Part shown: piece after piece, positions 3,538-8,725 of the stretch
How positions within the stretch are numbered: the first letter of the stretch is position 1
How the letters are laid out: each line of letters opens with the position of its first letter
Assembly (NCBI RefSeq): GCF_000012985.1
Contig: NC_007645.1
Span: 6,226,001 to 6,290,000 of the forward strand
Origin: Hahella chejuensis KCTC 2396
GTDB lineage: Bacteria > Pseudomonadota > Gammaproteobacteria > Pseudomonadales > Oleiphilaceae
Direction of reading: 5' to 3'
Length of the DNA: 64,000 bases
Position numbers and translations under genes: made by a program
Notes under the pieces: generated by a model
Databases searched by the model: none
What the model was told of the DNA's origin: nothing
Seen by the model: only the letters and a program-made list of their open reading frames with translations

Positions 3538-4662
3538 TTACTTCGCAGGCAGCTGTTCGTACAAATCGGACAACAAACGCTCCGTTTCCCCCCAGCCTAT
3601 GCATCCATCAGTAATCGAAACGCCGTATTGCAACGGTCTGTCTGGATGCACCTTCTGATTGCCTTCCTGCAGATAACTTTCCAGCATGACGCCCATGATC
3701 GTGGAGCTGCCTGTTTTAAGCTGACGCACCACTTCATTCAGCACTTTGGATTGATTGCGGAAGTCCTTTCGGCTGTTATCGTGGCTGCAGTCGACCATCA
3801 GGCGCACTGGCAGGCCGTGTTTTTCCAGCGCTTCGCTGTATTCTCTAACGCTGCCTTCATCGTAATTGGGGTTGCCTCTACCACCGCGTAGCACTAAGTG
3901 AACGTGAGGGTTGCCGAGGGTTTTGCGCATTTGGGGACGTCCGCAGGTGGACAAGGTGGGGTAACAGTGAGGGGAGCGGCTGGACTGCATGGCTTGTATC
4001 GCCACTTCCACTCCGCCGTCCGTCCCGTTCTTGAATCCGACTGCGGAGGTCAGGCCGCTGGCCATCTCTCTGTGCAATTGACTCTCTGTGGTGCGAGCGC
4101 CAATCGCCGTCCAGGACACCAAGTCCTGCAGGTAGTCCGAGACTATAGGACTCAACGCTTCCGTCGCCAGGGGCAGGCCAAGATGAGCCAACTCGACCAT
4201 CAGCCTTCTGGCCTTGTCCAAACCGTAGGCCATGTGGTGAGAGCCATCTAATAGAGGGTCGTACACCAAACCTTTCCAGCCAACGGTAGTACGGGGCTTT
4301 TCTACGTATGCGCGCATAACGATTTGCATGCGGTCATCCAATTGCGGCTTCAGTTCCGCCAAGCGACGACCGTACTCCAACACGCCATCGGTGTCGTGTA
4401 CGGAGCAAGGGCCGACAACGACCAACAAACGCGGATCATCGCCGTGCACAATATTGTTGATGGCTGTGCGCGCATTCTCCAGCTGAGTAGCCAGATACGC
4501 GTTAACGGGGTAGCGGTGCCGAAGTTGATTGGCGGAGGGCAGGATATCGCCCATCGGCTGTATTGGTGGCTCCATATGTTTCAATGTCTCGTCGATAACT
4601 GCTCTTGCCTTGATTCCCATCGACTTTACGCCGGATTCTTTGACTGTCGCTGCCTGGTTCAT
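3538..4662 (-). CDS. aroG: DAHP synthase, class I (AroF/AroG/AroH type)
   Basis: 3-Deoxy-7-phosphoheptulonate synthase condenses phosphoenolpyruvate and erythrose 4-phosphate, the first step of aromatic amino-acid synthesis. The sequence follows E. coli AroG closely: LLVVVGPCSVHD, EKPRTTVGWKGL, the GARTTESQ motif, GFKNGTDG, the metal-binding DCSHDNS and the C-terminal SITDGCIGW. I start it at ATG 4662 (374 residues) because GGGAG lies eight bases upstream; a start at 4695 has no ribosome site. The family usually has about 350 residues, so the N-terminus is slightly long. The symbol aroG stands for the isozyme family; which aromatic inhibits it cannot be read. A leader peptide rich in Phe, Tyr and Trp plus a terminator lie upstream. 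Confidence 0.93.
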   Translation of the reverse strand: MNQAATVKESGVKSMGIKARAVIDETLKHMEPPIQPMGDILPSANQLRHRYPVNAYLATQLENARTAINNIVHGDDPRLLVVVGPCSVHDTDGVLEYGRRLAELKPQLDDRMQIVMRAYVEKPRTTVGWKGLVYDPLLDGSHHMAYGLDKARRLMVELAHLGLPLATEALSPIVSDYLQDLVSWTAIGARTTESQLHREMASGLTSAVGFKNGTDGGVEVAIQAMQSSRSPHCYPTLSTCGRPQMRKTLGNPHVHLVLRGGRGNPNYDEGSVREYSEALEKHGLPVRLMVDCSHDNSRKDFRNQSKVLNEVVRQLKTGSSTIMGVMLESYLQEGNQKVHPDRPLQYGVSITDGCIGWGETERLLSDLYEQLPAK

Positions 4663-4933
4663 TGGTTCTCTCCCGATATTACTCTGTGTCTGCATTCGAT
4701 TCGTAAGTTAGTGATTCAGTTTAAAATCAATAACTAAATCGAGACTGACACCACCATCTAGGCAGAAAGCGACCGCACACATCACTATGTTGAAGCGCCG
4801 GCGCCGGTTCCCTGTCCTCATTAGTATACGACTGATTACCCATCATGACCTTACCCTGTTGATTACCTGTTTGCTTCAATTCAACTGCCAACGACACCTT
4901 GTTGATTCGCAGCTTCCGGTCTCGCGAGGGTAT

Positions 4934-4968
4934 AAAAAAAGCCCCGGAGACATTTGCCTTCGGAGCTT
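4934..4968 (-). terminator. Attenuator terminator upstream of the DAHP synthase gene
   Basis: Read on the minus strand, AAGCTCCGAAGGC (4956-4968) pairs, with two wobbles and one mismatch, with GTCTCCGGGGCTT (from 4951 down to 4939), followed by a run of seven T (4940-4934). This is a Rho-independent terminator. It lies about 270 bases before the DAHP synthase start and about 70 bases after the end of an aromatic-rich leader ORF, in the position of an attenuator. Confidence 0.75.
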
Positions 4969-5013
4969 CTTTGAGAGTTCTTCCGGAAGGCAGTTTCGTT
5001 AAACGCGCCTTCC
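4956..5013 (-). promoter_or_regulatory. Competing stems of the attenuator
   Basis: On the minus strand GGAAGGC (5013-5007) pairs perfectly with GCCTTCC (4991-4985), giving a stem of seven pairs. The same GCCTTCC segment can instead pair with the GAAGGC (4961-4956) arm of the terminator, extended by GGA/TCC with one bulged base. Thus the upstream stem, the alternative stem and the terminator stem are mutually exclusive, the 1-2-3-4 pattern of ribosome-controlled attenuators. The first arm is about 27 bases past the leader stop codon, so the exact coupling to ribosome position is not obvious. Confidence 0.6.
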
Positions 5014-5039
5014 TGTAAACCTATGTATGCGGGGGCTCG

Positions 5040-5159
5040 TTAACGATGGTTATAAAAATAAAACCAAAAATGCCAACCGCTAAAATACGCACGAACGCCA
5101 GCAATCGCTGCATTGCTGGAGAAAGATTTGAAAATGTTGAGAGTGTTGTGCGTATTCAT
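5040..5159 (-). CDS. Leader peptide rich in Phe/Tyr/Trp codons
   Basis: A 39-codon ORF (ATG 5159, TAA 5042-5040) too short for usual gene callers. It begins MNTHNTLNIFKSF and ends YFSGWHFWFYFYNHR: nine of the twelve residues 25-36 are Phe, Tyr or Trp. It sits just upstream of competing stems and a U-tract terminator, and in front of the DAHP synthase gene. It therefore fits a leader peptide on which ribosomes stall when any aromatic aminoacyl-tRNA runs short. A possible promoter (TTGCTT, 18-base spacer, TAGTAT) would put the transcript start almost at the ATG, so translation could be leaderless; no clear ribosome site is seen. The composition is direct observation and the role is inference. 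Confidence 0.75.
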   Translation of the reverse strand: MNTHNTLNIFKSFSSNAAIAGVRAYFSGWHFWFYFYNHR

Positions 5160-5249
5160 GGATTAGATACTAACCTGCGGTTTTAACAAAAAGCAACTGC
5201 AAACGGGAAAAAAATTCGGCTGCCTCAGGCATGCTTCATTTTCTATGCC

Positions 5250-5909
5250 TTACACCACCTGTCCCAGCTGTCTCAACTTTTTCTTCAATGCGTCGTTTTC
5301 TTCCTGCAGCGCCTCCAAGCGCACCTCCAAATCCGTTATTTTCGCCTTGTAGGCGGAGATGCTGCCGGAGTCAGAAGGGGCCGCCGTCTCGACTGGTTCT
5401 ATGTCGCTGCTGAACATATGCATATAGCGCGACTCTCTCTTGCCCGGCTCGCGCGGCAGCATTACGACCAATGGTCCCAGCTTGTGTTCGAGCAGCCGCT
5501 TCAGCGTCGACTCCGTCGCCTGGACATCAGAGAACTCAGCCATTCTGCTCGCGCGTGAGCGCAGCTCTCCCGGCGTTTGCGGACCCCGTAGCAGTAGCTC
5601 GCATACAACGGCCACTTGCTGCGCATCCAGCTTTAGTTCGCCAAACTCCGTGTTGCAAAAGCGATGGTGATACTTCTCCACCCTGCTTCCATAACTACTG
5701 CCTTTAACCAGATCCTTACGTTGCAGCGCTTCCAGGGTTTGACGGACAGTCGCCTCATCCAGCTCCAGTACCGGATGGCGATTGCTTTTCTGGTTACAGG
5801 CGTTCACCAACGCATTCAATGACAACGGATATTGATCCGGCGTCGTGATTTCTTTCTCCAGCAACACCCCGACTACACGGGTTTCATAAAGCGTCAGATC
5901 TTTTTTCAT
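5250..5909 (-). CDS. yceH: YceH family protein (DUF480/UPF0502)
   Basis: A 219-residue protein of the conserved YceH family, recognisable by LTLYETRVVGVLLEKEITTP at the start, NALVNACNQKSNR, the VLVxELLLRGPQTPGELRxR-type segment and a C-terminal coiled-coil (about residues 185-215). The fold is two winged helices, suggesting nucleic-acid or regulatory binding, but no function is established. I start it at ATG 5909, eight bases after AAGGAG; the GTG at 5918 overlaps that site. It follows the J-domain gene by 40 bases and is likely the last gene of a vWA/J-domain/yceH transcript. Confidence 0.88.
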   Translation of the reverse strand: MKKDLTLYETRVVGVLLEKEITTPDQYPLSLNALVNACNQKSNRHPVLELDEATVRQTLEALQRKDLVKGSSYGSRVEKYHHRFCNTEFGELKLDAQQVAVVCELLLRGPQTPGELRSRASRMAEFSDVQATESTLKRLLEHKLGPLVVMLPREPGKRESRYMHMFSSDIEPVETAAPSDSGSISAYKAKITDLEVRLEALQEENDALKKKLRQLGQVV

Positions 5910-7879: not shown

Positions 7880-8725
7880 GTGATTGTCTATCAAGGTCAT
7901 GAGGGCGCTTACTCCCATCTGGCGTGCAAGCATGTTTTTCCCGATCGTGAAGCCAGAGCGTGCAGCTCGTTTCGCGCCGCGATGGAAGAGGTGGAGCAAG
8001 GCAAAGCTGATCTGGCGATGATTCCTCTGGAGAATTCCACCGCCGGCCGAGTGGAGGAGATTTACCGCTTGATTCCGCAAATGAGCCTGCATATTCAGGA
8101 AGAGCACTTTGAAGCGGTGAATCACTGCCTTATGGCGCTTCCCGGCGCTCGTTTGGAGGACCTGCGCGTCGTCGGCTCACACCCGCAGGCGTTGGCGCAA
8201 TGCGCCGACCACATTCGTGAACTGGGCCTGGACCCCGTCGCCACCCTGGACACCGCCGGCGCAGCCCTGGAAGTCAGCCAAAGCGGCGATAAAACCAAAG
8301 CCGCTATCGCGTCCAGTCTGGCGGCGGAGCTGTATGGACTGGAGGTTCTGAAAGAGAATTTTCAGGACAAAACCGGCAACACCACCCGTTTCATCATCCT
8401 TTCCCATGAAAGCAAATTGCCGCCGCTGGAGCCGGGAGTGAAATATATCACCTCCCTGCTGTTCCGGGTGCGCAATATACCCGCCGCTTTGTACAAGGCG
8501 CTGGGTGGGTTCGCCACCAATGGCGTAAACCTGGTGAAACTGGAAAGTTATATGCCGGGCGGCACCTTGAACGCCAGTCAATTCCACGTGGACATTGAGG
8601 GTCATATCGACTCGCCGAATATGAAGCTTGCCCTGGAAGAGCTGACGTTCTTCGCCGAGGACATTCGCATGTTGGGCACTTATCGAGCGCATCCAACGCG
8701 CGCCAGCCGCAGCTTTCACGACTGA
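7880..8725 (+). CDS. pheA: Prephenate dehydratase with ACT domain
   Basis: Converts prephenate to phenylpyruvate, the committed step to phenylalanine. It is a 281-residue monofunctional enzyme with no chorismate mutase domain. The catalytic domain (about residues 1-175) has YQGHEGAYSH, PLENSTAGRV and the GNTTRF motif carrying the catalytic Thr. An ACT domain (about 190-270) follows, but the Phe-binding ESRP of the E. coli type is ESYM here, a form I associate with alphaproteobacterial enzymes, so feedback by Phe may differ. The start is GTG 7880, six bases after GAGG. The long hairpin-rich upstream region suggests special control. Confidence 0.92.
   Translation: MIVYQGHEGAYSHLACKHVFPDREARACSSFRAAMEEVEQGKADLAMIPLENSTAGRVEEIYRLIPQMSLHIQEEHFEAVNHCLMALPGARLEDLRVVGSHPQALAQCADHIRELGLDPVATLDTAGAALEVSQSGDKTKAAIASSLAAELYGLEVLKENFQDKTGNTTRFIILSHESKLPPLEPGVKYITSLLFRVRNIPAALYKALGGFATNGVNLVKLESYMPGGTLNASQFHVDIEGHIDSPNMKLALEELTFFAEDIRMLGTYRAHPTRASRSFHD

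What the first reader, a model, noticed from the sequence alone, without database searches (positions are those of the whole stretch)
4934..5159. A DAHP synthase leader peptide carrying Phe, Tyr and Trp codons, with attenuator stems
A 39-codon ORF ends YFSGWHFWFYFYNHR and is followed by mutually exclusive stems and a stem with seven T, all before a DAHP synthase gene. All three aromatic residues in one run would let one attenuator sense total aromatic supply at the first step of the pathway. Leaders I know for such genes usually sense one amino acid. Seen in sequence: ORF, stems and U-tract. Established: attenuation of trp and phe operons. Inference: this controls the DAHP synthase.
Basis: partly seen in the sequence, partly recalled or inferred. 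Interest (0 to 1): 0.85.

Follow-up and report, generated by a model that had tools for sequence, protein, structure and literature searches.

The report
Aromatic-sensing leader before DAHP synthase
Upstream of the gene for the first enzyme of aromatic amino acid synthesis lies a short coding sequence packed with phenylalanine, tyrosine and tryptophan codons plus an RNA switch that would let the cell turn the gene up when any of the three runs short; the same arrangement is kept in many related bacteria.

Summary
On the minus strand a 39-codon ORF (5159-5040) with the run YFSGWHFWFYFY is followed by alternative stems and a terminator with seven U (4972-4935), ahead of a class-I DAHP synthase gene. 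Such an ORF precedes 62 of the 80 best DAHP synthase relatives; the other 18 are 17 loci titled as cyanobacteria, Desulfosarcina or Nitrospira, and one cut contig. Best reading: a six-segment ribosome-mediated attenuator, built like the his leader. In 60 of 62 leaders folded (61 relatives and the window) the antiterminator is favoured while the ribosome stands on aromatic codons and lost near the stop; all 62 hold Phe, Trp and Tyr. Leader-bearing DAHP synthases form one branch, and Rfam 'sRNA P15' is the corresponding leader in Pseudomonas-like genomes. Two extras: the leader mRNA looks leaderless, and a second aromatic-rich ORF (window 4846-4727), elsewhere with an invariant TGGCGATTT, often lies before the gene, mechanism unknown. 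DAHP synthase leaders are known elsewhere (Corynebacterium AroR, Phe-Tyr-Phe), so this is a new variant of a known kind. Sensing of all three amino acids is inferred, not shown.

The parts
5167..5196 (-). promoter-like site: TTGCTT (5196-5191), 18-nt spacer, TAGTAT (5172-5167), then 7 nt to the leader ATG
   Evidence: Read by eye, using the geometry (-10 hexamer ends 7 nt before the ATG in 58 of 63 leaders). For the window itself the script chose another hexamer (d=2), and the strict scan found none: weak evidence here.
5040..5159 (-). leader peptide ORF 1, 39 aa, MNTHNTLNIFKSFSSNAAIAGVRAYFSGWHFWFYFYNHR
   Evidence: excess of synonymous change in the N-terminal half of relatives
5052..5087 (-). 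aromatic run Y F S G W H F W F Y F Y (codons 5087-5052)
   Evidence: F, W and Y in 62 of 62 leaders folded
4996..5046 (-). segments 2 and 3: 5046-5040 pairs with 5002-4996 (also 5039-5038/5005-5004 and 5036-5034/5009-5007) when the ribosome stands in the run
   Evidence: A site at 5072 and at 5063
4985..5013 (-). segments 3 and 4: 5013-5006 pairs with 4992-4985 (anti-antiterminator) when the ribosome is past the run
   Evidence: A site at 5051 and at the stop codon
4955..4992 (-). antiterminator, segments 4 and 5: 4992-4986 pairs with 4961-4955, 4984-4982 with 4964-4962
   Evidence: 13.2 predicted pairs on aromatic codons against 2.5 at the end of the ORF, 0 of 30 shuffles as good (window row)
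4935..4972 (-). intrinsic terminator, segments 5 and 6, with U-tract 4941-4935
   Evidence: terminator motif in 61 of 62 relatives with the ORF
4727..4846 (-). candidate second leader ORF, ends ...GRFLPRWWCQSRFSY; no U-tract terminator seen after it
   Evidence: counterparts in L002 and L004 end ...RWEPYHFYWIRWWCQSRFSY/H
3538..4662 (-). class-I DAHP synthase gene (start 4662 has GGGAGAG before it; the longest ORF starts at 4695)

Best explanation
This is a ribosome-mediated transcription attenuator of the DAHP synthase gene with six RNA segments, built like the his leader. RNA polymerase starts at or next to the leader AUG and a ribosome follows it. If charged Phe-, Tyr- or Trp-tRNA is short, the ribosome stalls in the run YFSGWHFWFYFY; segment 2 then pairs with 3, which frees 4 to pair with 5 (antiterminator), and polymerase reads on into the gene. 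If all three are in supply, the ribosome reaches the stop codon and covers segment 2, so 3 pairs with 4 and 5 with 6, and transcription ends at the U-tract. Shown by computation: the ORF, its conservation, a coding signal in its N-terminal half, the segments, the position-dependent switch, and the link to one DAHP synthase branch. Inferred: that it works in the cell, and that each of the three amino acids counts.
For: ORF in 62 of 80 loci, terminator motif in 61 of the 62. F, W and Y in 62 of 62 leaders folded. Antiterminator pairing high on the run and low at its end in 60 of 62, mean 12.1 against 4.1 pairs. By codon, at least 8 antiterminator pairs at 267 of 275 F, 120 of 122 W and 134 of 135 Y positions, but at 37 of 347 codons well beyond the run. 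Change on both sides in 11 of 39 pairs of the terminator state, 0 of 500 shuffles as many. Coding signal in codons 2-24: 1620 of 5592 codon differences synonymous in frame against 600 of 5611 and 432 of 5372 in shifted frames (45-residue leaders). The 14 DAHP synthases labelled as leader-bearing, of 113 in the order, fall on one branch, support 99/99. 27 of the 30 covariance-model loci returned from 390 genomes hold a DAHP synthase.
Against: No transcript or expression data. The alternative state (2:3, 4:5) shows weak covariation: both-side change in 3 of 15 pairs, 6 of 500 shuffles as many. L002 (Hahella ganghwensis) goes the wrong way and L013 shows no clear switch at the standard footprint. 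The real fall beat all 30 shuffles in only 24 of 62 leaders (at most 1 shuffle reached it in 45 of 62). In three loci of family f36 (L126, L127, L253) pairing stays high to the stop, as it largely does in L104. In the run and tail themselves the coding test is not met: one shifted frame has the larger synonymous share in both length groups, and the 44-residue group gives a weaker N-terminal signal. The strict promoter scan found nothing. Most of the relatives are Marinobacter and not independent. C. glutamicum AroR has a Tyr codon but no Tyr response.
Confidence: 0.87

Rival explanations
1. The leader is an attenuator but effectively senses only one or two of the amino acids (for example Phe, the most frequent codon), the other codons being passengers.
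For: C. glutamicum AroR holds Phe-Tyr-Phe but does not respond to Tyr (PMC11802643, passage seen). F is the most frequent aromatic codon in the leaders (275 F, 122 W, 135 Y).
Against: All three kinds are present in 62 of 62 leaders and in 20 of 20 further ones that could be analysed (4 of the 24 asked for gave none). W and Y positions lie in the zone where a stall favours the antiterminator (120 of 122 W, 134 of 135 Y).
Confidence: 0.3
2. The hairpin is an ordinary terminator of the upstream DUF480 gene (5918-5250) and the DAHP synthase has its own promoter between 4934 and 4695; the ORF is chance.
For: The upstream gene is on the same strand. No promoter passed the strict scan of 4600-5400.
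Against: The aromatic ORF, its N-terminal coding signal and the switch are kept in relatives; the run did not arise in simulated windows; in relatives a conserved promoter-like site precedes the leader ATG.
Confidence: 0.04
3. The terminated leader acts mainly as a trans-acting small RNA (as Rfam's name for P15 implies) or its peptide acts in trans, like rnTrpL and peTrpL of Sinorhizobium; cis attenuation is secondary.
For: P15 is filed as a Pseudomonas sRNA, and PMC2375449 (passage) counts it among sRNAs detected by Livny et al., though that study itself did not identify it. Trans roles exist for the S. meliloti trp leader (PMC7298713, passages).
Against: The element lies upstream of a DAHP synthase in 3 of 3 P15 hits (read) and in 27 of 30 R1 loci, and the switch geometry is explained by cis attenuation. 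A short RNA is what attenuation itself makes. The two roles do not exclude each other.
Confidence: 0.1
4. In one relative (L003) the last hairpin covers the ribosome binding site instead of ending in a U-tract, so the leader may control translation there, and possibly also elsewhere through the second ORF.
For: L003 keeps the aromatic ORF but has a stem ACTCTCT...AGAGAGT over the GGAGAG before the ATG.
Against: One contig of a MAG only. Predicted accessibility changes little with ribosome position there, and not consistently for the second ORF in 25 loci.
Confidence: 0.15

Closest known systems
Corynebacterium glutamicum aroR-aroF attenuator (Neshat et al. 2014; known here from passages of PMC11802643 and PMC4046766, original not seen)
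   Same: Leader peptide with aromatic codons before a DAHP synthase gene; ribosome-mediated attenuation
   Different: Actinobacterial; run is Phe-Tyr-Phe and responds to Phe, not Tyr. Here 9 aromatics in 12 with all three kinds, in Gammaproteobacteria.
Escherichia coli his operon leader (recalled)
   Same: Six alternating segments: 1:2, 3:4, 5:6 against 2:3, 4:5
   Different: Histidine codons and a different gene. Rfam His_leader is not matched in the window; one sub-threshold hit on the opposite strand of L002 is not taken as homology.
Rfam RF00627 'Pseudomonas sRNA P15'
   Same: In Pseudomonas-like genomes it covers the aromatic run and terminator before a DAHP synthase; four of the six loci over the cut-off are in the tree and on the leader branch
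   Different: The P15 model has no match over its cut-off in the window. Five P15-type leaders read have a Shine-Dalgarno sequence, whereas Hahella and Marinobacter leaders look leaderless.
Acholeplasma uORFC-13-1 motif upstream of aroF (PMC8632094, passage)
   Same: uORF and terminator before a DAHP synthase gene
   Different: Phe only, as the passage describes it; genus Acholeplasma and environmental sequences; a different structure
E. coli aroF-tyrA attenuation hypothesis (Camakaris 1980, cited in PMC2659441 and PMC8632094, original not seen) and Shewanella aroF/aroH predictions (PMC2659441, passages)
   Same: Attenuation proposed at a DAHP synthase gene in Gammaproteobacteria
   Different: aroF: Tyr-tRNA; aroH: 'possible transcription termination'; no three-amino-acid run in the passages seen
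Sinorhizobium meliloti trpL (PMC7298713, passages)
   Same: Leader mRNA whose 5' end is the ATG of the leader peptide (leaderless)
   Different: Trp leader of the trp operon, Alphaproteobacteria; here the start is only inferred from promoter spacing

Membership tests
ribosome-mediated transcription attenuators (trp/his/phe type) | short translated ORF upstream with codons for the end product of the regulated pathway | tested here: met
   run of 9 aromatics in 12; coding signal in the N-terminal half of relatives, not separable in the run itself; translation not testable
ribosome-mediated transcription attenuators (trp/his/phe type) | intrinsic terminator between ORF and gene | tested here: met
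   stem and 7 U at 4972-4935; motif in 61 of 62 relatives with the ORF; the simple scanner did not list it on this strand
ribosome-mediated transcription attenuators (trp/his/phe type) | antiterminator exclusive with the terminator and dependent on ribosome position | tested here: met
   60 of 62 leaders including the window; not in L002 and L013, nor in three loci of family f36
ribosome-mediated transcription attenuators (trp/his/phe type) | expression rises on starvation for the encoded amino acids | not testable with these tools
   needs reporter or RNA-seq
Rfam RF00627 P15 | covariance model score over the gathering cut-off | tested here: not met
   window: no match. Over the cut-off in L118, L120, L121, L128, L261, L266; under it in L117, L126, L127; not listed at E 0.1 in L123, L200, L206
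Rfam Trp_leader, Phe_leader, His_leader | covariance model score over the gathering cut-off | tested here: not met
   0 matches of any family in the window
leaderless leader-peptide mRNAs | transcript begins at the leader AUG | tested here: inconclusive
   -10 hexamer ends 7 nt before the ATG in 58 of 63, Shine-Dalgarno-like sequence in 1 of 63; the ATG was picked by promoter score; window fits by eye only; no 5' end mapped

The most novel reading that the evidence does not exclude
DAHP synthase in this order is governed by two aromatic-coded leaders in series. A leaderless three-amino-acid attenuator ends transcription; then a second, separately conserved ORF with codons such as YYR..YRYDWRFS, and an invariant TGGCGATTT whose rare CGA Arg codon slows the ribosome, adds a second checkpoint just before the start codon by a mechanism not yet known.
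Probability: 0.3. Interest if true: 0.75.

Novelty: new variant of a known kind. Interest (0 to 1): 0.64.

Why it matters
If true, one RNA switch reads the pooled supply of all three aromatic amino acids at the committed step of their common pathway, a logic that single-amino-acid leaders cannot give; E. coli is recalled to use three isozymes and two repressors instead. It would give a function to Rfam's P15, described in our outputs only as a 'Pseudomonas sRNA'. It would also supply a leaderless leader peptide in Gammaproteobacteria, and a second conserved ORF with constraint at the nucleotide level that this work could not explain.

Tried and rejected
Rejected: that P15 belongs to the other DAHP synthase paralogue. 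I first read it so (note), but the trees put P15-type and Marinobacter/Hahella-type genes on one branch. The genome's own second DAHP synthase (G000:C1:2574275-2575279) shows no aromatic leader in the 800 nt before it, read by eye; it is the one place of the 114 listed that I left out of the 113-row set.

Tried without result: Shine-Dalgarno accessibility as a function of ribosome position on the second ORF (25 loci, no consistent change) and for L003. Three A-site labels printed are wrong in my script ('W first', 'W2' and 'last Y' are the His codon 5072, the Phe codon 5063 and the Asn codon 5051); the coordinates are right and are used here. In one search the count of second-ORF motifs took the first match in 420 nt, which in 4 of 22 loci was another site; I use instead. 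Eight further DAHP synthases had weaker aromatic ORFs (5-6 of 10 residues; L137, L142, L150, L164, L168, L171, L185, L213) and were not counted as leaders. L117 was labelled a leader after reading although the script missed it. For other orders of the class, the 29 new loci fetched gave 0 with 7 or more aromatics in 12 and one with 6 (L295); one search listed more places than I fetched.

Weak covariance-model hits (139 of 390 genomes at E 0.01) are largely bare terminators and were not counted. In one search, 36 of 84 loci held no DAHP synthase. Papers searched inside without a relevant passage: PMC2965389 (no hit for aroF, aroG, aromatic, deoxyheptonate or DAHP in its main text), PMC3937554. 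Older comparative papers on attenuators (recalled: Panina, Vitreschak) did not appear in my searches and were not looked up by id, so 'not in print' cannot be claimed; my ten searches listed no paper that I recognised as describing this leader.

Full report
What is there. On the minus strand of the window an ORF of 39 codons (5159-5040) ends in the run Y F S G W H F W F Y F Y N H R. After its stop come a hairpin and an intrinsic terminator with seven U (4941-4935). The class-I DAHP synthase gene follows, 239 nt on if it starts at 4695 (longest ORF), 272 nt on if it starts at 4662, where a Shine-Dalgarno sequence stands. The genome holding the window has 7,215,267 bases in one contig; its nearest named relative by this protein is Hahella sp. 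HN01, 98%. That it is Hahella chejuensis is recalled from the genome size, not tested.

Chance. A run of 9 aromatics in 12 occurs once in the six frames of the window and in none of 40 Markov-simulated windows.

Conservation. A scan of genome contigs found 216 relatives of the DAHP synthase, of which the best 80 were kept. In 62 of 80 an ORF with at least 7 aromatics in 12 lies within 800 nt upstream, and 61 of those 62 have a GGGG(C/T)TTT terminator motif after it. The 18 others are 17 loci titled Pseudanabaena, cyanobacterium, Prochlorococcus, Desulfosarcina or Nitrospira, and L011, whose sequence starts 103 nt before the match. Typical runs are VFFWWFGYGFYFSQSPGRP (Marinobacter), VYFQWFGFGYFHSHTPGHV (Vreelandella) and WAWFGFGFYYRQSSGRL (MAGs titled Pseudomonas and Pseudomonadaceae).

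Coding. For 31 distinct 45-residue leaders, codons 2-24 differ in 5592 codon pairs, of which 1620 are synonymous; the two shifted frames give 600 of 5611 and 432 of 5372. For 23 distinct 44-residue leaders the signal is weaker: 645 of 3705 against 435 of 3621 and 345 of 3632. In the run and tail there is no such excess: 608 of 2969 in frame against 524 of 3199 and 856 of 3008, and 203 of 2329 against 51 of 2281 and 658 of 2656, as one might expect where RNA structure overlaps. These are pairwise counts over related sequences, so they show direction rather than significance.

Anatomy of the switch in the window. With the A site at the His codon 5072 or the Phe codon 5063, the free RNA up to the terminator's 3' arm folds as 2:3 (5046-5040 with 5002-4996) plus the antiterminator 4:5 (4992-4986 with 4961-4955; 4984-4982 with 4964-4962). 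With the A site at the Asn codon 5051 or at the stop, 3:4 forms instead (5013-5006 with 4992-4985), which lets the terminator 5:6 form (4972-4961 with 4946-4935). The footprint used was 10 nt beyond the A-site codon.

Generality. The same calculation on 61 relatives and the window gave, on average, 12.1 antiterminator pairs on aromatic codons and 4.1 at the last codon and stop. The fall exceeds 3 pairs in 60 of 62 (58 and 57 of 62 with footprints of 8 and 13 nt). With the stretch between run and terminator shuffled (30 shuffles each; every third aromatic codon scored), no shuffle reached the real fall for 24 leaders and at most one did for 45 of 62. The window gives 13.2 against 2.5, with 0 of 30. 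L002 runs the wrong way and L013 barely falls. By codon, 267 of 275 Phe, 120 of 122 Trp and 134 of 135 Tyr positions give at least 8 antiterminator pairs, against 37 of 347 codons well beyond the run. All 62 leaders hold all three amino acids, and in 61 each of the three has such a position. I asked for 24 more leaders from the order; 20 could be analysed (one absent, three without a recognised leader and terminator). All 20 hold the three amino acids, and 17 have a position with at least 7 pairs for each. In several the pairing collapses exactly at the Ser codon after the last Phe (L120: W11 F10 S0 Q0). It does not collapse in L126, L127 and L253 (family f36) nor clearly in L104, and 29 of 105 codons beyond the run stay at 7 or more. 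L101 there has nearly the same profile as L016, so it is not independent of the first set.

Covariation. On 22 aligned leaders the terminator-state pairs show change on both sides in 11 of 39 pairs (shuffled mean 4.8, 0 of 500 as high), 91.3% of cells paired. The alternative pairs are weaker: 3 of 15 with both-side change, 6 of 500 shuffles as high, 87.2% paired.

Distribution. A covariance model (R1), searched in 390 genomes of the order, matches all 18 genomes of the window's family at E 4.2e-10 or better; the model was built from this family's relatives, so this is partly circular. Of the 30 loci returned, 27 hold a DAHP synthase. Among 113 DAHP synthases of the order (of 114 places in 84 genomes), the 14 labelled as leader-bearing lie on one branch with support 99/99, in 100% of 200 bootstrap trees. 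Cautions: the window's gene has a very long branch, the tree program warns of long branches meeting, the bootstrap had not fully settled, and one label (L117) rests on my reading. Of 29 DAHP synthase loci newly fetched from other orders of the class, none has 7 aromatics in 12.

Rfam P15. RF00627, called 'Pseudomonas sRNA P15', scores above its cut-off in six loci (L118, L120, L121, L128, L261, L266) over the aromatic run and terminator upstream of a DAHP synthase; their leaders end in ...YYFGYWFS...YFFYGYWFS and the like. Four of the six are in the tree and on the leader branch; L261 and L266 were not put in it. P15 stays under the cut-off in L117, L126 and L127 and has no match over its cut-off in the window. 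One paper suspected from synteny that P15 may be a riboswitch (PMC2527527, passage). Another counts it among sRNAs detected by Livny et al. but did not itself identify it (PMC2375449, passage). A short RNA fits an attenuated leader.

Leaderless start. In 58 of 63 leaders the best -10 hexamer ends exactly 7 nt before the leader ATG, typically TTGC(A/C)A-18 nt-TATATT-7 nt-ATG, and 1 of 63 has a Shine-Dalgarno-like sequence. The script picked the ATG by promoter score but not by distance. Transcription would then begin at or about one base before the AUG (general sigma-70 spacing, recalled). In the window TTGCTT-18-TAGTAT-7-ATG fits by eye, though the script picked another hexamer and the strict scan found none. 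Five P15-type leaders read (L117, L118, L120, L121, L128) have a GGAG instead. A leaderless leader peptide is known in S. meliloti (PMC7298713, passage).

A second aromatic ORF. Between terminator and gene a further short ORF recurs in several families: MNRYYRNYRYDWRFS..., MNRYYRNFALFCYWRFS..., MQHSASKSVSWWYAFGICWRFYRY, and in Hahella ...RWEPYHFYWIRWWCQSRFSY (window 4846-4727...GRFLPRWWCQSRFSY). 26 of 218 distinct DAHP synthase loci passed a test for (W/S)-R-F with any CGN and TTT/TTC codon and at least 4 aromatics. Four are Hahella; the other 22, near-duplicates included, all read TGGCGATTT. Ten of these 22 places were reached without the motif; the others came from a search for it. In the genes of 22 such loci Arg is CGA in 21 of 566 and Phe is TTT in 8 of 59 codons. 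The 13-mer CTGGCGATTTAGC occurs in 70 of 390 genomes, its reverse in 12 by my count of the table. Of 38 hits that I held as loci, 16 sit before a DAHP synthase (9 of 30 and 7 of 8); three more were already known, and the remaining hits were not fetched. Marinobacter loci L087-L100, L117 and the two f7 loci have no such motif between terminator and gene. Ribosome position on this ORF did not change predicted Shine-Dalgarno accessibility consistently, so its role is unexplained.

Comparison with the known. DAHP synthase leaders exist in C. glutamicum (AroR: Phe-Tyr-Phe, responds to Phe, not Tyr; PMC11802643; PMC4046766) and in Acholeplasma (uORFC-13-1, Phe; PMC8632094), and were hypothesised or predicted for E. 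coli and Shewanella (PMC2659441). I found none with all three amino acids, but the library lacks most subscription papers. It is therefore a new variant of a known kind; three-fold sensing is the natural reading of the anatomy and needs the starvation experiment.

Noticed in passing
window 4846-4727 (-): Second short aromatic-rich ORF between the terminator and DAHP synthase, ending WWCQSRFSY; counterparts in other families carry TGGCGATTT (Trp-Arg-Phe with a rare CGA codon).
   Followed up: partly
L118, L120, L121, L128, L261, L266: Rfam RF00627 (Pseudomonas sRNA P15) covers the leader of a DAHP synthase and encodes a ...GYWFS leader peptide.
   Followed up: yes
L003:2293-2440: Leader with the aromatic run but a final hairpin over the ribosome binding site in place of a terminator: possible translational variant, one MAG contig only.
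   Followed up: partly
L249, L250, L251, L252, L253, L112 (family f36): The second ORF ends within 4 nt of the DAHP synthase start codon, suggesting translational coupling.
   Followed up: no
L295 upstream of its DAHP synthase: 16-residue ORF MVVRFWFDWFVWNGKT outside the order: perhaps an independent Phe/Trp leader.
   Followed up: no
L137 upstream of its DAHP synthase (family f39): Short ORF ending GWWFTYFKS before a DAHP synthase that sat next to the leader branch in the quick tree (weak support); not counted as a leader.
   Followed up: no
window 7880-8725 (+): A prephenate dehydratase gene (Pfam PDT) lies about 3 kb from the DAHP synthase start, on the other strand; not examined for a leader.
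   Followed up: no
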